Assembly (NCBI GenBank): GCA_026120035.1
Contig: JALRME010000019.1
Coordinates: forward strand, 794,336 to 858,335
Source of the DNA: Coleophoma eucalyptorum
Taxonomy: Eukaryota; Ascomycota; Leotiomycetes; Helotiales; Dermateaceae
Direction: 5' to 3'
DNA length: 64,000 nucleotides
Part shown: piece by piece, positions 5,127 through 17,887 of the stretch
Layout of the letters: each line of letters opens with the position of its first letter
Position numbering within the stretch: position 1 is the first letter of the stretch
Position numbers and translations under genes: made by a program
Notes under the pieces: model-generated
Database searches by the model: none
The model's input: the letters and a program-made list of their open reading frames with translations, nothing else
Told to the model about the DNA's origin: nothing

Positions 5127-7236
5127 TCACACATGAGCCTCGCCATCCTCACCACTGGCACCTTCAACCTCACCCCGTACAACTCCCACCTCTTCCCTCT
5201 CCTCCTCCGTAACCTGACCGATCTTCCACCCGGTTCCAGCCTGCACCAGCACCATAGTGATCGCCAGACAACTGCCCGCCCAAAAGAGTGTCTTAAATGC
5301 ACCTACGTACGCATTGACAGCCACGGTCTTCTCCGCGCCCTCCAACCCCTGCACCAGAACAGGACTTCCCAGCAACCTCCTCAGCAATTGGTCCTTGCCC
5401 GTGAGACCATGCTCCTTGAAGCCCGCTTCCAAGTTGCGTTTCAGGACACGAATGAAGAAGCCGCCTCCAATGGCAGAGCCGAAAGAGCCTGCAAAGCCGC
5501 GGAACGTGTTGAGGAGTGAGGCGACGATGTAGTGGGTGTCGGGAGGTGTGAGGTGCAGCACGTGGGCGAGAGTGTAGTTCAGCGCTGCGCCAACGCAGAG
5601 GCCGTTGCTGAAGGTGGCGAGGACGTATGCCCATGTTGGTGTGGCCGGGTTGGAGATGAAGCCGAGAACGACAAGCGTCGACACGAAGAGGGTGTAGCAG
5701 ACTATACACGCTCTGGGATGTGTTTGTAAGTACTAGAACAACTGCATCGCATTCGCGTGACGAGGCTGTGACAGGAGACTTACGACCAGAAACTACCCGC
5801 TCTTCGGATGTGCAATGCACCTGCTAATATACTTCCGGCAGCAAAACCCATGTTGGTGGGAACTAGAATACTTCCCGCAGATGCGGGACTCCAGCCTTTG
5901 ATACTGAGTTCGTAGACTGGAGTGTAGAAAAGCACCATCCATCGGGATGCCATAATCCCCAGTTGTGCAAAGCAGCTTAGCAATGCTCCTCGTGACTTCA
6001 GAACGGTGACGGGGATGATAGGGTCACTTGAAAAGTAGATCTCGATGTATAGGAAACAAGGGAAGGTAATGAAGGAGAGGATGACTGAGAGCCATTGGAT
6101 CGTAGGAGCGGAGAGACCATAGAGGAAGAGCACGATAGTTAGAGTCTAGATAATTAGCAGGACTCATTCTCTCAGGATGAGAAATCCTTACCAAGGATAT
6201 AGCTCCAAGGTAGTCAATCCTGACCAGTTTGGACCACGTCGACCTCTCGCCGCTATGTTTTGACGCGGAAGATGTGAAGCTCTTCGGGATACTGAATGCG
6301 ACACCCAACCCAGCAAGCAAAGCCAGGGGGCTCTGGACCAGAAATAGAAATCTCTGGCACGAAGTTTTAGCAAAATTCTACCTCGAAAAAGAAGAATCAA
6401 CTTACCCATCCAGTGATACCGACCAAAGCACCAGCAAGAACAGCACCTAGAGCCACACCACTAGTGAAGCCCGTATTGGCCAAGCCAACGAACAAGCCTC
6501 TCCTCGTCTTCCCACTCAACTCAAGAACCAAGACAAACGTAATGGTCATGATTCCAGCACCGCCTACTCCACTGATCGCTCTCCCGAACAAGAAGACCGG
6601 CAGCGATGGCGCAGAAGCAGTGACAATTCCACCCAGCGAGAAGAGCACCGAGGCGAAGAACATACAGTTCCGTGGTGAGAAGATGGTCGCTAATCGACCG
6701 GCCAGTGGTGCACAACTCGACATTGCGATCTGAGAAGAAGAATTAGTGGCATAGGTGGAAAAAAAGTAAGGAAGAGAAAATACCAGATACGCAGATGTGA
6801 ACCATGATGTTTCTTCAAAAGCATCGAGCTCCTCCGCAATGATAGACTGGGTGACAGCGATGACGGAGATATTACTAGCTTAACACACGATTAGTCTCTG
6901 GAACTTCACAAATCAAATCCAGACCATACCTTGCAAAAAGATCAAACCCCACAGACTCAGGATAATAAAGAGAGCTCTCGTGCTGCCAACACTCTGGTTC
7001 GGCCTATCGCCATCATGTTCCTCGCCCGCATCGGCGAGAGTGCCTTCGCTACCATCGCTACCGTCATCACTGCCACGAGTACCTGGTCCCAACAAAGGAG
7101 TGCTCTCTCCAATGGATCTTTGATGTTGCGCATGCAGAGTCGGTGACACGAGACCACTTTCTTCATTTATTTGCGCGCCATCGCGTGACCGGCTCCTTAT
7201 CGCAGCGGCGGTTTGGACAGACCTACCAGAAGCCAT
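5127..7236 (-). CDS. MFS transporter, DHA2 / vacuolar basic amino acid (Vba/Fnx)-like
   Basis: Six exons on the minus strand (6930-7236, 6784-6878, 6406-6729, 6192-6353, 5784-6145, 5127-5712) encode 611 residues, consistent with a 14-helix MFS drug:proton antiporter-2 family protein. The first 85 or so residues are hydrophilic and contain ESTPLL, an acidic-dileucine-like signal of the kind used for vacuolar sorting. The membrane part begins with LFIILSLWGLIFLQ, followed by TSWFTSAYL, the motif A region PLAGRLA, the motif C-like SGVALGAVLAGAL and GWRFLFLVQ. These fit the Fnx1/Vba group of vacuolar amino-acid exporters as well as multidrug exporters, so the substrate is open. I chose the ATG at 7236 because an in-frame TAA lies a few codons upstream with no earlier ATG. 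Confidence 0.85.
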
Positions 7237-7963: not shown

Positions 7964-10900
7964 CTAGTATCCGGCTGGGAATAATCTACTGGCAATCAAA
8001 CTGCTGTATTCGCCCTCCTCTTTTGCAGCCGACGTTACAAGTCCAAGCTTAGACCCGAATCCAGGGAATGGTTGGTGTTGTGTAGATTCTGAGTCTTCAA
8101 CTTCTTTCAATGTCTTTCCAGTACGCATCTGAATAATATCAACATCTATGGTATTGGTACTCAGCATCTCGTAAACATGAACATCGTACTTCTGTCCATG
8201 CCGCCGAGCTCTACCAATTGCCTGCAGCTTTTGGTCACGATATGCGGCCTGTGAAGAGACACCATGGATATTGTACGGGTGGTAGAAGATTACATGATTT
8301 GCTCTAGTAAGGTTACTGTCACAATTATTAGCAGGTTCTAGACACCGCAAGACATTTTGAACTTACGCTCCACTCGCGGAGGCATCCCCTAACTTTAGCA
8401 ATAAGACTTGTGTATTATCCCGCCCATTTTGCCAAGCATTGAGAGCATCTGACGATTTATTTGAGTCATCTAGGAAGGTGTATCCGACCTCGCACTCGGT
8501 GAAAGCTTCCTCGATAACAGTTCGAATCTCGTCATACTGCACAAACAACAGGATTCCACCAGTCGTTTTACCAAGCTCATAATGTCCTTGAATATTCTTA
8601 ATAAGATCAACAAGATCAGAGATCTTCCGCCCGAAGTAAGGTCCATGAACTATATCTGTGCTTTGGTCCCCAATATAGCCAATTTTAGTCTGCTCAAATG
8701 ACTTCGAGGAAGCTGAGCAAGTTTCGACGGAACAATCCTCTATCGGCGAGAACTTGACATAACACTTCTTACAAACGGTGTGGCCGCAAGTTGAGAAGAT
8801 GGTAGCATCCGGAAGACTACGAATAACTTCATTACAACCCCCGCAGTTGACTTCCTTGCCCTTCAGCATGCTGCAAAGAACCTCAAGATATCGTAAATAT
8901 CTCTTTCGAGTTACAAGTTCGTTGCCTTGCTTCGTCAAAGCTGTGACGACAAGGCGAAGCTCCACTTCTTTGTTTGACAAGTTCTTGTACTGACTCTTTT
9001 GGCTCTTGCCCATAGGGTATGGCTTTCTTGAGTCACTATCGCCGCTGTCTTCATCAGAATCGACAAGACTGTATGGACGATACCATTTCTCCCACTGATC
9101 ATATGAAACGTGTTGTTCGGCCGCGGTGACGCAGTTGATCATGCGAGTTGTGACTTCTTGATCACCAAATGCATTGCTTCGAAGACGCGCCTTCCACATA
9201 TCAAGCCGGTCGTTCGAATGATTCTTTGTAGCATTTTGGAGCCATGTAGCCTTGGTAATTGAGTCGTTAAACCTTTCCCAAAACTGCTCGTATTCCTCTC
9301 GGCGAACGATTAGATTGGATTCGCATGTGCTCGAGGTAGCCTTCAGATATTCTTTTATCTTCTCGTACGAAGTGTCGACCCCTGCCTGGATCAAGAACGC
9401 CTGCTCACTGTCCTCACATGTCTTAACATCTTGCGTCAGTTGCTGGCTTCGACTGCTTCCATAACTAATTGATCTCTTAATATTTGCCATCTGGAAATCG
9501 CAAGACTGCAAGGCTGAGGCGAATTCTATTCCATGGGCTCGTTCGTAAGCTGACTGCCGAGTGAGGACATAGTGGGTGTAAAAGTCAATATTGGGAATCT
9601 TTGCAGTGTTCTGTTCACAACTTAGTATATTCATACAATTAGTAGTTTTAAGCTTACCTGTCGAACGTATAGATCACAGAAAGTTTGTGCAACCTCATTA
9701 TCTCGCTCAAGGAAAGCACTTGAAGGATTTTCGAACTGAGCCAAGTACAACTCCCTACTGGTTGAATCTTTCTCCAAACTCTTGATCTGGTCAGCGTTCA
9801 TAGAAGCCTGAGAAGTACGGCCCAAATCTAGACCAACCCATTGGGCCATATTCTTGATATCCTGCAGGTTGCCAAGCGGAGGAGTTCCTGAAAGTGCCCA
9901 TCGAGCATTGGCGTAGAGGTTCTGGACAACCAATGCAGCTTGTGACGTATTATCAAGATATGTGAATTCATCAACGATGACACGAGCAAATCGAAATATT
10001 TCAAAAATTGGAGATGTCATGTTTGTCCAATGTCCCAGCTTTTGGAATCCAAAAATATCCTTGCGAGGCTTGAGCTTCATGTCAGAAGGAACTTTAGCCA
10101 AAATCTCAGTGCCGAGCGCCTTGCGCTCTTTCGATGCTAGATATTGTGCACCACGGAATCGCTTAGATGGGATTGGAACGTCGACATTCTGTGTCTGTTG
10201 CATGTGCTCTTCATACTGCCTCTGGAGACTCTTGTTCATTCCTGCAGGGTTATTGCGTAATTCGTCAACGTTATTGAGAATCTTCTCGCGTGCTTGCTTA
10301 TACCACGTCGCAGTTGCGCGCGAGCCTGCATTCTCCGCGGGCTCCACAAGACCTGCAAATTGAGCGACTCTAAGGGCGTAGCCTGCACTCTCGCATACTC
10401 GCCAGTTGACAATGATTAGTGACGCCTGCTGAAAGTCTAACACAGATTTCTTATTGAAATCGTCAATACGGTTGACTACCAGAATATCTGACTGGCTGTA
10501 TCCCAAGAACTTCTCAGCCTCATTTCGCCACTGTCCGGTCAGATGTGCAGGAACAAATATTATGGTGGCCTTGAGAGGTATCATTCCTCGAATGTCATCG
10601 TTTGCAGCCTTCATATCTTTGCTAAACTGGACACTATGTAGCATGAGTTGCATCAAGGTCTTGCCAAAACCAATATGGTCAGAGCAGATTCCACCTCGAG
10701 CAGAGCATTTCATACTTGCTCGTGCTTCGAGACGATACCCCAGGGTCTGGATGCGCTGCTCTTTTACTTCTTCTCGGATAAAGACAGGAGGGTTGTTCTC
10801 CTGTGCCAGCATCCAGCGAAGCTCTTTCTTCTGTTCCTCTCGTGGAATACCGCGGAATGCAGCAGATAATTCGATGTTCATGTCCATCTCGTCCTCGCAG

Positions 10901-13900
10901 TCCTTCAGATACAAGGCTGTGAGATTTGCCTTTCTGTCCGAAGCCTCATCGGTTACCAGGCGATAGGAATGCATTACCTCCATCTCACAATGATCCCTAA
11001 TCTTTTCAAGAAGAGCTGCCTCAGCCTGATGAAGCAGTGTTTGTGGATTATAGCCGACTTTGATTTGAAGTGAATGCCTCGTCGCATCGAAGCGATAGAA
11101 AGCTTCGAGGGCCCTTGGACGGGTCTTTAAGGATCGTTCGTAGGCAGCAGCCTCTTTAGGATCTTCAAAGGGAATTTGCTTTCCGTTCTTGATCTTCCAC
11201 AAAATCTTGGGAGAATATGGCGCACAAGAAGTGCACCGATCTGGATGCTGGCGGGCACATACATGTTGCCAATTATCACTGGATTCAATATGGCAGCTCA
11301 ACTTCTTACCTTGAGCTAGCATCCAGAGCAATTCGTCTTTGATATCGAGTTCAGTGGCCTTGGTAAGCTTGACCCACTCGTTAGGAGACCATCTAGGTTG
11401 TACATCCTTGGGCAATTTGGCTTCACATATAAGAGCGGCATATTTGGTGCTGCACCCACTGGACAAGGATAACGGTTGCTTCGGCAGTTGACGATATCGG
11501 ATTCTGTCTTCGTTGCCATTCTTATAAAATCTGATATCAGCTACAGTTTTCCACTTTCCTCGAACTGTGAGGTTTATCTTCTCTACACGGTTGAGCTGAT
11601 TTTCCTTGACCTGGTCAGACTTGACTTGATATATTCGCTCAGCCTCATGCTTTGATGATTTGACTAGTTGATACTTCTGTTGTCGCCAGTCGCTCGTGAG
11701 AGAAGCAAGAATTTGTCGCTTAGAAGACCAGGCGTGTTGAGATCTGTCATGTGTGAACACAAATCTGCTATCCTTTGGATCTTGTCCAACACTTTCTTGA
11801 TCAAGAAAGAAATAAAGAGGAGAAGTGGTGCCTTTTGTATCTTTCTTAATATGGAAAGAATCAAAAGGCATACCACAGTTCTGAGAGAGCTCATAATCAC
11901 CGCTGAGATTCCCAAAGCTGTTGACGTTCCATGTCTTGGGAAGATCGAGCTTATATGAAGTGGAGACATACTCATTTGAGTGTTGGGGAATACCAATCTT
12001 GTTTTCGAAAGAAGGTACGAGTAGGCCATAACCGGTCAATGTAGCTTGAAAGTTTGACTCTTGAGGAAGCCAGAAGTCCCAGGCACCATCTAAGAGATCT
12101 GTCTTGTTGGGGAACATTCGGGCGATTGGGTATTGCAGATATGAACGCGAGGCATGGTTGTTCCTCACGTTGTTCCCAGGCTTAGCGAACAAGTTCCATT
12201 CCAAATCGTGCTCGCTGATATGAAGAATAAGCTGTGCAGAGCCCGATTCGTAGTAGGCTTTCCAAGTTTCTCCACGATGGATCTTCTGTAAGCATAGTTC
12301 GGAGGAGAATGCTTGTTCGATGGGTTGGAAGATCAGGTCTCGGGTAGGAGCCTGAAAGCACTCTTGATACTCGTTAAAGACTTTCTTGAGATCCAGTGGG
12401 CCGAAACGAATCTTCTTTGGCAAAGACTCTAAGAGCATGGTAGCAAATTTTGACGGTTCTAGTCGTGATGCAACCAGATGATCTGGCAAAGTTACATAGC
12501 TGTGTCGAGGCTTTTGCCCACAACGGATGTGAGTTGTATGACCACATATAGTGCACTTTTGCATGGGTAATTTATGCAAATCTGAAGTATTCTCGCAAAG
12601 GCAATAGCGAGCTGTAAGAGCGGCAAAGCTGCGCAAAGCGCTGGCGGTCGAAATTTTGTATGAGTAAGGATTTGCTACATAGGTAGTAAGATGGGCTTCA
12701 CCCTGAAGCAAATGGTCAACTTTGTGATTAAGAAGTTTTAATACCTTCGGACCAGGCTCCAATTCTCTATAGAAGACTGCAAAGGCAGCAAGAATACAGG
12801 CTCCAACAACAGTGGAGCTCATAGCATTGCCTGCCAAGTCTCTGATTTGCTTTGAGCTCAAGCGGTTGAAATCTAGTCGTTCTATTGGAAGTCCTTGTAG
12901 AGCAACCACTTCAGAACCGGAGATACCACCAAATCGTGAGGTGTGAACGAACATGCCACTTGGTGTGATACAAGGTGCCCGCCCAGATGAAATAGTATCT
13001 ATACCCTGCATGTCAATGTTCTGCGATACATCAATGCAACGGCTAACATAACGCTGGTCATAACCACGTCGAATCGCACGAAGGTAGCTAAGGTCCAAGA
13101 AATCAAATACGCGCTCTCCTAGAGTAGGCACATAATTATCGCTATTGTCGGGAAATATTGTTGCGCCGCCGTTCTGCCAACTGGTGAATGGCCGTCCTTC
13201 TCCAAGTTCCAAATCATGCCTAAGCTGTTGATGACGAACGAAACAAGTTGACCAGTCGTGAACCGTGTTACTTGAGGCTGAAAGATCAAGACCACGCGGA
13301 ATATGAGGGCTATCATGCTCGAAGAGCATGCTCTCATAAGGAACAGAATTCTGTCTCTTCAAGAGGCTCATCATATCCAGCCATTTTTTTCCTGACTTCT
13401 GGTTCCAAGCAGCAAGTTCCTTGCGCGGTAGAACTGCATCTTTCCGCATGACATCGACACACACCATGTAGCCTCGCAAGCGTGTTTGCGGAATATAATA
13501 GTCACTCGAATCTAATGACGCGAACTGGCAGGCGTAACCAATCTTGCGCATGTATTCGTTGAATGCAGTCTTCCCATTTCCACCGACATTCTCGTTCTCC
13601 CAATTCTCTTCATTGACTTGTTCTTGAAGCCACGGTGCTCCTTTGACGTTTTCGGTAACCAGGAGTCTAGGACGTAACTTTTGGCAATAATCCCGAAGAG
13701 CTAGAAAAGTGTCGCCAGATTCGCCTCCTGCTTCAATAGACTTGGTAGCAACGTTGAGGTTGGAGAAGTCGACGCAACAAGTACCCGCTATAAGGATGTC
13801 CAGATTGCCAGCAACATTCTTCTTACTACCGAGAGCAGTGATTCTGTACAGGTTAGCAGCTGCTACAACACCACTTCTAATGATTGCACTTACGCTTCGA

Positions 13901-14858
13901 TCTTTCCACCTGCTCGCTTGACGCTAACATCCAAGACATCTCGGAAGAGCTCTTCTGGTTCAAAGTTGGTTTGAATGTAAGATTGCTTAAATGGTACGAT
14001 CTCAAAGCTAAACTTGTGGGCAACATTCAATTGCGCGTTGTTCAAAGTCTTGGATTTCTTGCAGAGTTCACCGATATCTAATAACAACGTTAGAAATGAA
14101 AACTGCGGAATTGACTTGATACATACGTTTGGAAAACATCTCTAAAGCAAGAATTGGAGACTCGGTTCCAGAACAGAAAGTGCCAACAGTCAGCGGTCTA
14201 TTCCCCATGTGCAAGAGGAAGCTCTCAATATGCTTCCAAGCATTACCAATCAGATCTCTGAAGAAGTCCTCATTCTTGTTGAGTGGCGCAAGCCCTGCCT
14301 GAAAGCCACACTTGAATGTGAACTTGTCTTGTTTCCGTTTGGCTTCTTTCCCGTTGTTTTGGCCACCAAGAGAGCTAATATTGGCTAGAGTTGGTCTTCG
14401 AGCCCAATCATTTTCAGGATCTTCTTCTGAATCAAGAAATTCTTCGCTGTGGTTAGTTTAGACCTCGGAGATTCAGATGAATACTCACCAGTGGATATTT
14501 TTGAAGTCGAGGCTTTCTTAGCAGCCCTCTTCAGAGCCTTGTGCAATTTAGGATTTTGTATTGGCTGGCGAGAACTTGCTTTGCTCCGTGACCGCGAATC
14601 TGTCTTCTGCTTCTTTACTGGTTGTTGAATAAACTCATCCAGGGATTCGTAGCCATTGCTTGAACCCACAGCTGAGTCACTTGAGCCCTCTGGATCCATG
14701 TCTTCAGTAGCACTGGACTCATCCATCGTCTCTTTGTAAGAAGAAGAAGAAGAAGAGGAAGCGTATTTGAATTGTACTGGAGGGGAAGAACGGCGTGATA
14801 TCTTTCTAGGTTGAGTAATAGGTTCATGTGACAAGTTGCGTTTGACGCCCCTAGCCAT
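7964..14858 (-). CDS. dnmt5: Dnmt5-class DNA cytosine methyltransferase with SNF2-type ATPase and RING finger
   Basis: Six exons (14489-14858, 14127-14426 or -14441, 13894-14077, 9658-13843, 8367-9610, 7964-8315) give 2,211 or 2,216 residues. An acidic, Ser- and Lys-rich N-terminus (residues 1-150) precedes the methyltransferase domain. That domain has motif I GTFCSGTE (about 205), a motif IV equivalent GTCCVDFSNLN (about 310), motif VI ENVKGAPW (about 350), QTRLRG, and motif X GNAM (about 627). A Cys/His cluster CTICGHTTHIRCG follows at about 720. The SNF2 ATPase half has Walker A GFGKT (about 1349), a DEFT box (about 1580), SGTPP, a RING (CGGC...CGHTVCKKCY, about 1937-1970), and helicase motif VI AIGRARRHGQ (about 2133). 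This order matches Cryptococcus Dnmt5, an ATP-dependent maintenance CpG methylase. I see no chromodomain. The role here, nuclear DNA methylation, is inferred from family. Confidence 0.9.
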
Positions 14859-15677: not shown

Positions 15678-16434
15678 TCAATTTCTGGTTCTTCCGAACA
15701 ATTCAGTATCGAGTAGTTCACGTCCATTTCGATATATTGTTGACACTAGCCATAGGGAACCTGTCTCGTTATAGATAACTACGATAAAGGCAAGCTTTGC
15801 TCCGGACAAAAGAAATATTCAACTCACTTCTGTGATCTTCCAAAGTAAAACTTTTGGAGGTCCCTCTGCTGAGTACGTCTTCAAAATCCTTTCTGGCATT
15901 ACCAGTAATATTACTCTGTTGCGAAAGGGGGATGTATGATAAGCCTCTCCTGCTTAAAGTCCTCCCAGGGCTTGTGATCAAGACGGCAAGGTTGGCATGA
16001 GCCCGGCCTCTCCAAACTGATGACCTGGGATCAGAAGGATGTAACCCATCATCGAGGATTACCACTGGTGTACTCAAATTTATAGCAGAAGGACAAGGTT
16101 CCTCGTCCTCGTGCTTGTGCTTGTTATCTGCATCTGAATTCTCAGAAGTATCGGCTGAGTCCAGCAGTAGTAGAGATTGTCGAACTCTACCTCGTGTTTC
16201 TTTGGCGGCTTTCCTAGCACTACCTCGGCGACCAATTTTTTGGTGTCTGGTCTCGCTCTCTTTCCAGTGTGAATCTGAGCTTGGGTAGAGCATATAACCC
16301 TTGCTACTACTTTGTGCCATCTTTCTTTTCTTACCAGATTTTAAGGTTACAGAGTAATTCGCTTGGTGCCCGGAAAGGTCAGATGCTGTGTTCATAACGG
16401 ATACTCCAGTATCCAGAGTGATCTCAGCTTGCAT
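15678..16434 (-). CDS. Orphan basic/acidic low-complexity protein, hypothetical
   Basis: From the ATG at 16434 an uninterrupted frame runs to a stop at 15769 (221 residues). A GTGAGT donor near 15825 and an acceptor GAGACAG near 15774 would instead splice to a short last exon ending at a TGA at 15678-15680; that end is used here but is uncertain. The protein is not recognised. It has no membrane helices, a Lys/Arg-rich stretch (GKKRKMAQSSSK; RKAAKETRGRVRQ) that could direct it to the nucleus, then an acidic Asp/Glu/His segment and a hydrophobic-Asp motif VVILDDGL. It lies in tandem upstream of the Dnmt5-class gene, about 0.8 kb away. It may be a lineage-specific gene or a chance frame. Confidence 0.35.
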
Positions 16435-17887
16435 AGAGTTGCTCTGGCAAGATTCGAGAGGGGTTTGTATCTTGTTGGGAGTCGGTTCTGCTTCAAAATC
16501 CGCGATGTCTGTAGCAGAGACCGAAGTCGATTGGCTTATTACAAAGTCTCTAATTGCCTAAAATATCGTGCGCTAAGATTTCCCCCACAAGATGTCTCAG
16601 GATAGCAATACCGTATTAAAGTTTCGCTTGATGCTGCTCTCTCAGCAACGTATGTAACGTCAAGCTAGCAATCGTCGATATGCCAGTTCTCGAGAGTGGT
16701 GGTTGTCCAGTAGGAATAGAGTCGAGACGTATATCCGTGGTGGATTCCGCAAGGTGAGGCCTGCTTTAGAGCAATTGATGATAGGACTGGATATGTCAAG
16801 TCAATATACTTCACAGTTTCACTCGACCTCGTTGCTGCCCTTAAAGAATATTTCTCGAACCTGCGTCAATGCTCTTCGTCGAAGGAAAGAATGCTTCGGC
16901 GTGCTATTAATAAATGGTGGTGGGATACAGAAAAAATCTACCATACCCCTTGGCGGTAGTTAGCCTTTGTTAAAGAGCGAAAAGACAGCCCAATGCTGAT
17001 GGGAGATATACCGAAGAGATAATGTCCATGTCGTATGCACCGAGAATAACTAACCATGCTATCTAGTTTAGTTCTTGAACAAGTAGTTGACAGAATCAGC
17101 AAATTCTAATATGAACTACGGTTTCGTAAAACCAAGGCAGCATGGCTTTGACCAAAGAGATCTGTGAAAAGCAGGCAATCAACATTTACTTCTACCAGAC
17201 GCGGGCGAGAATCTGGGGAAGACGCGATTTTTACTAGCGCGTCCTGGTGCGGCCGCATCTGGTATTACTCCTACACCTCTTCCATACTTGGTGACCAAAA
17301 TTTGAACTAAGTGTGATTAACATTATGAATCTGTTGCTGGCATTGAATTAATCAGTACAAATGCTAGATTTCTTAATTCTTTCTCATGTATGCTCAGAAA
17401 CAATGCGCTGGGAAAATACTCTCACGATGTTCAACTTTCAATAGGAAAGCTGTCTTCATACAATGAAAACAATTTGTTATAAAGACCTTGACTAAGGAGA
17501 AATAAAGTTAAATACTTCAAACCACATCTGCATAAGATTTAATTAAGAAGAAAGCCATTCTTTTAGCTACAAGTACCTACTCAAATTCCGGAGCTTATTG
17601 ATTGATTGAGCAACCTCGATTACCAGGCTTGCTGCTCAAATTGATGACACAGTAGTTCTTAAATGTGGTAAACTTGATATGGAACTACCTACTTCTATTT
17701 TGAGTATTCTTACCTTAAGGCACAATGTAGACCACGCTTTTGATCTAGAAAATGCCTACAGTGTACCTGCAGAGTACCTTGAAGCACTTCGGATCACGCA
17801 TTACTAAGCGGATCGACCAACCCCTCACAGCACCTGTCCTGCCACGATGACTGTACAAGTGAAGCATCAGCCTCAAAAGCTGCAATC
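16435..17887. other. AT-rich gene-free block
   Basis: No coding frame is convincing. The part from about 17,040 to 17,860 is clearly AT-rich, with many A/T runs. It could be degenerate repeat DNA or simply a long intergenic spacer; no transposon ends or coding remains are visible. The right end supplies the promoter of the 2H phosphoesterase gene. Confidence 0.5.

What the first reader, a model, noticed from the sequence alone, without database searches (positions are those of the whole stretch)
7964..14858. Dnmt5-class DNA methyltransferase-ATPase in an ascomycete
The gene fuses a cytosine-5 methyltransferase, a RING finger inserted in an SNF2-type ATPase, and helicase motif VI in one chain of about 2,210 residues. 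Seen: motifs I, IV, VI, VIII and X of the methylase, Walker A, SGTPP, RING and QxxGRxxRxGQ-like motif in order. Known: Cryptococcus Dnmt5 uses ATP for strict maintenance of CpG methylation without a de novo enzyme. Inference: this fungus has heritable CpG methylation, separate from the DIM-2/RID pathways usual in Pezizomycotina.
Basis: partly seen in the sequence, partly recalled or inferred. Interest (0 to 1): 0.8.

Follow-up and report, generated by a model that had tools for sequence, protein, structure and literature searches.

The report
Ordinary Dnmt5 gene, unusual methylation toolkit
This is an intact copy of a known enzyme, Dnmt5, which is thought to burn ATP to copy DNA methylation marks; such genes are already known from many ascomycete fungi, but this fungus also appears to carry a rarer animal-like methylation-copying set (a DNMT1-type enzyme and UHRF1), which makes it a useful test organism.

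Summary
One minus-strand gene (ATG 14858, stop 7964) has six exons and encodes 2216 residues: a cytosine-5 methyltransferase, an SNF2 ATPase with a RING between its lobes, and helicase motif VI, in that order. It aligns with a solved Dnmt5 chain over residues 173-2193 at 1e-207 and sits in a Dnmt5 clade with 100/100 support.

Dnmt5 is not unusual in ascomycetes: 8 of the 10 Dnmt5 relatives found bear ascomycete names (placement recalled), and Dim2+Rid+Dnmt5 is called the commonest ascomycete set (PMC8091789, passages). This genome also carries DIM-2 and RID genes and HP1 and DIM-5 candidates, so nothing shows a separate Dnmt5 pathway.

Repeats show a strong CpA (RIP) signature plus a weaker CpG excess, clear in one family and marginal in another. 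That fits some CpG methylation but cannot be assigned to Dnmt5. The gene is a new member of a known kind, in an interesting genome.

The parts
7964..14858 (-). Dnmt5 gene, six exons: 14858-14489, 14441-14127, 14077-13894, 13843-9658, 9610-8367, 8315-7964
   Evidence: open frame of 2216 codons with five GT...AG introns of 47-51 bases
14296..14858 (-). N-terminal tail, residues 1-172, rich in Ser and Lys/Arg, no domain recognised (span includes intron 1)
   Evidence: no Pfam match in this part at E <= 1; alignment to 7r76_A starts at residue 173. Window coordinates of domains worked out by hand from the exon table
12718..14229 (-). cytosine-5 methyltransferase domain, residues about 195-665 (limits chosen by me): motifs I, IV (TCCVDFS), VI (ENV), VIII (QTRLR), X (LAGNAM)
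9793..10833 (-). SNF2 ATPase lobe 1, residues about 1294-1640 (end chosen by me): Walker A GFGKT, DE box VDEF, SGTPP
8717..8851 (-). RING-type zinc finger, residues 1939-1983, between the two ATPase lobes
   Evidence: cysteine/histidine pattern and alignment; no significant Pfam RING match
8195..8602 (-). ATPase lobe 2 (Helicase_C), residues about 2022-2140, motif VI QAIGRARRHGQ (span includes intron 5)
   Evidence: (under the Pfam cut-off)

Best explanation
The gene is an orthologue of Dnmt5: an ATP-dependent cytosine-5 DNA methyltransferase that, by analogy with Cryptococcus Dnmt5, recognises hemimethylated CpG, uses its SNF2 ATPase to let the target base reach the catalytic site, and so maintains symmetric CpG methylation. 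Shown here: complete architecture, conserved catalytic and ATPase motifs, clade membership, intact frame. Inferred: enzyme activity, CpG and hemimethyl specificity, in vivo role. No chromodomain like that of the Cryptococcus enzyme was found, so recruitment to heterochromatin would have to go through partners such as HP1 or an SRA protein, for which candidates are encoded here. It probably works beside DIM-2 and RID, and here also beside a DNMT1-type enzyme and UHRF1, not as the sole methylase. The rivals below concern its role and weight and overlap with this reading in part.
For: Gene model, 2216 aa. 7r76_A at 1e-207 over residues 173-2193, and the ATPase and C-terminal parts match it on their own at 2e-44 and 1e-34. 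Catalytic and ATPase motifs kept. Tree 100/100. 87% identity over 100% of the query to a Coleophoma protein, so the long frame is kept across species. Candidate partners: chromo-shadow, Pre-SET, two SRA matches. CpG C-to-T rate in three long copies of one repeat family is 1.7 to 2.0 times that of CpC+CpT.
Against: No expression, methylation or enzyme data. In V. dahliae JR2 and Z. tritici Dnmt5 contributes little (PMC8091789). The Cryptococcus targeting domain was not found. The stem to the query-Coleophoma pair is long (0.9 changes per column), so specificity could have drifted. The CpG excess is marginal in the second repeat family (CpG 125/2924, CpC 139/3845, CpT 103/6319, non-independent pairs) and may belong to RIP or to another methylase.
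Confidence: 0.75

Rival explanations
1. A real Dnmt5 that is a secondary or conditional enzyme: DIM-2 (with HP1 and DIM-5) makes most 5mC, and Dnmt5 acts redundantly or only in certain stages.
For: DIM-2 and RID genes and HP1 and DIM-5 candidates are in the genome. V. dahliae JR2: 3 windows hypomethylated in CG without Dnmt5 against 100 without Dim2; similar outcome stated for Z. tritici (PMC8091789, passages). No chromodomain found.
Against: P. destructans is reported with high CG and low non-CG methylation (PMC7862722, passages). In V. dahliae V592 methylation fell slightly without Dnmt5 and hardly without Dim2 (PMC10638132, passages).
Confidence: 0.45
2. Dnmt5 kept for a function other than methylation, such as Rad5/Rad8-like repair or chromatin remodelling by the RING-SNF2 half.
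For: The SNF2 half also matches Rad5 (6l8n_A 1.2e-5), and the authors of PMC8091789 raise DNA-associated processes other than methylation.
Against: All catalytic methylase motifs are kept in the query and nearly all in its relatives, which argues for selection on methylation.
Confidence: 0.1
3. CpG methylation in this fungus, if present, is maintained mainly by the DNMT1/Masc2-type enzyme with UHRF1, and Dnmt5 is a back-up.
For: DNMT1-type gene on contig C46 (BAH plus methylase; groups with DNMT1-type rows) and a UHRF1-like protein. CpG signatures in repeats have been linked to Masc2-class genes (PMC4352252, passages).
Against: The C46 enzyme is divergent: motif IV reads PVCDG where most relatives have PPCQ, motif X GNSVP for GNAVP. 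No replication-foci domain was found, but nothing rang in the controls either, so absence is not shown.
Confidence: 0.3

Closest known systems
Cryptococcus neoformans Dnmt5 (PDB 7r76, deposited as 'DNA repair protein Rad8'; that this chain is C. neoformans Dnmt5 is recalled and fits PMC7862722, which equates Rad8 with DNMT5)
   Same: Order and kind of all domains from residue 173 on; TSCVDYS/TCCVDFS, ENV, TRxR, DLAGNAM, GKT, DEFTYL, SGTPP, RING cysteines, QAIGR
   Different: No chromodomain found here; the host has DIM-2, RID and a DNMT1-type gene, whereas C. neoformans is said to retain only Dnmt5 (PMC8091789 and PMC13297926, passages)
Coleophoma crateriformis hypothetical protein BP5796_01808 (P0001)
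   Same: 87% identity over 100% of the query, same motifs
   Different: Small differences only; its public name is 'hypothetical protein'
Verticillium dahliae Dnmt5 (PMC8091789, passages)
   Same: Ascomycete Dnmt5 reported to lack the N-terminal chromo domain (the paper writes chromo-shadow); co-occurs with Dim2, Rid, Hp1, Dim5
   Different: Sequence not compared here; three DNMTs reported there, none of DNMT1 type
Pseudogymnoascus Dnmt5 (P0002)
   Same: Next relative in the tree (82/96), same architecture
   Different: 32% identity; 467 residues before motif I against 208

Membership tests
Dnmt5 | Cytosine-5 methyltransferase fused to an SNF2-type ATPase in one chain, with a RING between the ATPase lobes | tested here: met
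   RING by spacing and alignment, Pfam RING not significant; Helicase_C just under cut-off
Dnmt5 | Methylase domain groups with Dnmt5 and not with DNMT1, DIM-2 or RID | tested here: met
   11 of 11 Dnmt5 rows on one side of a 100/100 branch; DNMT2 not included
Dnmt5 | Catalytic methylase and ATPase motifs intact | tested here: met
Dnmt5 (Cryptococcus type) | N-terminal chromodomain | tested here: not met
   none at E <= 1; none in P0001-P0004 at E <= 0.1 and PF00385 in none of the ten precomputed domain lists (P0005, P0006 and P0010 have short or missing N-termini). V. dahliae Dnmt5 is reported without it too, so it does not define the whole family
Dnmt5 | ATP-dependent methylation of hemimethylated CpG | not testable with these tools
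   needs biochemistry or bisulfite data
DNMT1 or DIM-2 (alternative placements) | BAH domain, or DUF7893 with BAH | tested here: not met
   no BAH or DUF7893 in the window protein; tree
Rad5/Rad8 repair ATPase without methylase | No methylase domain | tested here: not met
   PF00145 at 49.9 bits

The most novel reading that the evidence does not exclude
This fungus runs two CpG maintenance machines side by side: ATP-driven Dnmt5, perhaps with an SRA-only adaptor, and an animal-like DNMT1-type enzyme with a UBL-PHD-SRA-RING UHRF1, on top of DIM-2 and RID. That would make it an ascomycete in which the division of labour between the two, and the open question of whether UHRF1-like adaptors serve Dnmt5 outside Cryptococcus, can be tested in one genome.
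Probability: 0.3. Interest if true: 0.55.

Novelty: new member of a known kind. Interest (0 to 1): 0.3.

Why it matters
The gene alone adds one more ascomycete Dnmt5. The repertoire around it is less usual: a 2026 review says it is unknown whether UHRF1-like adaptors work with Dnmt5 outside C. neoformans (PMC13297926, passages), and one survey found the Masc2 class in only one of the 16 ascomycetes in its tree (PMC4352252, passages). A fungus holding both systems would allow single and double deletions to show which one carries CpG memory, and whether the CpG excess of C-to-T changes in its repeats follows from it.

Tried and rejected
Rejected: a pseudogene or chance frame (open over 2216 codons and conserved in Coleophoma); a plain Rad5-type protein (methylase present); a DIM-2, DNMT1 or RID identity; 'Dnmt5 in an ascomycete is new'. 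DNMT2: the PF00145 search gave six matches, all from four loci (C9, C46, C11, C12), none of which I would call DNMT2; a weak or many-exon gene could be missed. CDCA7: one zf-4CXXC_R1 match in a 1217-residue frame; a 72-residue piece that I cut from that locus gave no Pfam match at 1e-4, perhaps because I mis-cut it, and it was not followed further. DNMT1-RFD: none found, but the controls did not ring. Dinucleotide content shows RIP-like repeats (L027-L030: TpA o/e 1.30-1.39, CpG o/e 1.00-1.34) and no CpG depletion there, so context-specific rates were counted instead.

What was left out of the mutation test. One search gave 34 matches and 30 loci; one search compared 17 of the 29 other loci with L035 (4 long, 13 short) and six ordered pairs among L037-L039. 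Only L037-L040 went to the Fisher test. L036 (98% identical) has few changes: CpA 9/214, CpC 1/216, CpG 3/213, CpT 0/241. The 12 other short pieces have 28-36 CpG sites each; there CpG ranges from slightly above to well below CpA, and in two (L052, L055) it is below CpC or CpT. L035 is not ancestral: 127-176 of about 2,280 A/T sites differ the other way in L037-L039.

Full report
What is there. The window is part of a 45.26 Mb genome in 101 contigs. On the minus strand, ATG 14858 to stop 7964, six exons separated by introns of 47-51 bases encode 2216 residues. Of the 17 other stop-to-stop frames of 230 residues or more in the window, 16 were scanned, and the piece 6397-6879 besides: an MFS transporter piece and an unassigned frame lie next to Dnmt5; further off are sugar transporter, P450, RING, ERG4/24, SPT16, SAE2, ubiquitin hydrolase, CDC50 and peptidase M1 frames. 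No mobile-element domain was among the matches.

Host. The best protein matches of three of its genes are from Coleophoma: Dnmt5 87%, the DNMT1-type gene 69-74%, UHRF1 77% over 82% of the query. That Coleophoma is a leotiomycete of the Helotiales is recalled; no barcode was examined.

Identity. Pfam gives DNA_methylase at residues 288-637, SNF2 at 1294-1410 and a Helicase_C match just under its cut-off at 2022-2140. The solved chain 7r76_A (2348 residues, deposited as Rad8; its being C. neoformans Dnmt5 is recalled) aligns over residues 173-2193 at 1e-207, and the ATPase and C-terminal parts match it on their own. A search that scored 4091 candidates returned 11 proteins: ten with methylase and SNF2 domains and one (P0011) with RING and SNF2 domains but no methylase. 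Of the ten, nine carry an organism name: eight ascomycete genera (placement recalled) and the amoeba Planoprotostelium. The nearest is Coleophoma crateriformis at 87% over 100% of the query; the next is Pseudogymnoascus at 32%. Two rows (own RID, P0028) had 35-38% of the columns filled, two slices (P0003, P0013) were cut too long and trimmed by column filling, and DNMT2 was not included.

What differs. The first 172 residues have no recognised domain, P0001-P0004 show no chromodomain, and none of the ten precomputed domain lists has PF00385. Cryptococcus Dnmt5 has one; V. dahliae Dnmt5 is reported to lack it (PMC8091789, passages). The stem to the query-Coleophoma pair is long (0.9), and some residues are private to the pair among the eleven, such as TCC in motif IV and RFGG where most have RGGP, so conclusions about specificity drawn from Cryptococcus are inference.

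The rest of the methylation machinery. PF00145 rings at four loci (six matches in all). C12 is this gene. C9 is a 1405-residue frame with DUF7893 and a sub-threshold BAH, DIM-2-like, grouping with two DUF7893 proteins at 100/100. C11 has SPPCQTWSPAHT and EQT motifs, which I read as RID from recall. C46 is a BAH-methylase protein; its 17 hits, from a capped set of 7995 candidates, are led by Coleophoma and Mollisiaceae, 9 of the 17 carry a DNMT1-RFD domain and 2 carry DUF7893. In the tree C46 groups with Coleophoma, Mollisiaceae and P0015 rows (95/98 for the five-row set), although the DNMT1-type rows as a whole are not one clade (2 changes). C46 keeps the catalytic cysteine, ENV and QSR, but motif IV is PVCDG, shared with C. 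cylindrospora.

SRA domains ring twice. C46:418747 lies in a frame with SRA (128 bits), RING (three models over their cut-offs, others under), a ubiquitin match under its cut-off and a cysteine pattern that I read as PHD; Pfam listed no PHD and no tandem Tudor match for this frame, which was scanned with introns read through. Its best relative (P0029, Coleophoma) has a PHD domain in its precomputed list, and the next listed hits are UHRF1-type proteins of fungi and animals (120 of 1023 shown). C57:1013318 is a second SRA match in a short frame without other Pfam domains. A chromo-shadow match (C46:741057), with a chromodomain match about 0.3 kb upstream (C46:740677), is the HP1 candidate; one Pre-SET match is the DIM-5 candidate.

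Mutation signature as a proxy. One less-mutated copy of a retrotransposon-like family (L035) was compared pairwise with others, counting C-to-T by the following base in L035. For L037, L038, L039: CpA 178/449, 291/449, 321/449; CpG 78/450, 122/450, 142/449; CpC 41/453, 73/452, 83/452; CpT 58/544, 80/542, 78/542. CpG against CpC+CpT: odds ratios 1.9, 2.0, 2.4 with p from 1e-4 to 9e-11, and 5.5 (p 3e-4) for the piece L040 (copies share history, so these are not independent). In six of six ordered pairs among L037-L039 CpG is above both CpC and CpT. L035 itself carries changes, so the direction is only approximate. In a second family (six loci, 30 ordered pairs pooled, first alignment of each, not independent) CpA is 743/2661, CpG 125/2924, CpC 139/3845, CpT 103/6319: CpG exceeds CpT but hardly CpC. 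So RIP of the CpA kind is clear, and a CpG component is present in one family and marginal in the other. PMC4352252 (passages) links CpG signatures to deamination of methylated CpG and to Masc2-class enzymes; here the component could come from Dnmt5, C46, DIM-2 or RIP itself.

Mechanism. For Cryptococcus Dnmt5 (review PMC13297926, passages): hemimethylated CpG activates the ATPase, ATP binding reorganises the catalytic centre, and the base is extruded and methylated. The query has the parts needed. Whether it does so in this fungus is inferred. The ascomycete literature is mixed: Dim2 dominates in V. dahliae JR2 and Z. tritici (PMC8091789, passages); slight losses without Dnmt5 or Rid, and little effect of Dim2, in V. 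dahliae V592 (PMC10638132, passages); CG-rich methylation in P. destructans (PMC7862722, passages), while B. cinerea, said to have the same genotype, has very low methylation (PMC8399656, passages).

How common. PMC8091789 calls Dim2+Rid+Dnmt5 the most common ascomycete combination. Against that, PMC7862722 (passages) names RID and Dim-2 as the main ascomycete enzymes with some additional DNMT5, and PMC12543289 (passages) reports Dnmt5 lost in most Sordariomycetes and absent in 13 of 29 species of one leotiomycete clade. So it is widespread but patchy.

Novelty. Dnmt5 in ascomycetes is established. DNMT5 with Helotiales gave 0 papers and DNMT1 with Leotiomycetes and DNA methylation gave 2, in an open-access library that lacks most subscription journals, so the combination of DNMT1, UHRF1 and Dnmt5 may be in print elsewhere (for instance Bewick et al. 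2019, recalled, not read). The structure paper of Dnmt5 was not held.

Noticed in passing
G000 contig C46:1046500-1052500 (L018): DNMT1/Masc2-type enzyme (BAH plus methylase) with unusual motif IV PVCDG and motif X GNSVP shared with Coleophoma; catalytic Cys kept.
   Followed up: partly
G000 contig C46:418000-421800 (L007, L021): UHRF1-like gene: ubiquitin-like region, PHD-like cysteines, SRA and RING, with little room for a tandem Tudor domain; relatives in Coleophoma, Phlyctema and Geoglossum.
   Followed up: partly
G000 contig C57:1011500-1015500 (L020): Second SRA match in a short frame without another Pfam domain; a candidate for the stripped-down UHRF1-like adaptor described in Cryptococcus.
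   Followed up: no
G000 C49, C59, C86, C17 repeats (L026-L030, L035-L039): Chromodomain retrotransposon-like copies with strong CpA-to-TpA (RIP-like) change and a secondary CpG component; other copies (C86, C100) nearly untouched.
   Followed up: yes
P0005 (Planoprotostelium fungivorum): Dnmt5 attributed to an amoeba nests inside the fungal Dnmt5 rows with Geopyxis and P0010 (99/100); horizontal transfer or carry-over from fungal food.
   Followed up: no
P0013 (Coleophoma crateriformis DNMT1-type): Public model shows gaps at methylase motifs I, IV and VI in the alignment; a mis-annotated exon or a real loss.
   Followed up: no
G000 contig C16:5424-5639 (L065): Single zf-4CXXC_R1 match in a 1217-residue frame; whether it is a JmjC-type or CDCA7-type protein was not settled.
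   Followed up: partly
window 15772-16557, minus: 262-residue frame next to Dnmt5 with no Pfam match at E <= 1e-5; not identified.
   Followed up: no
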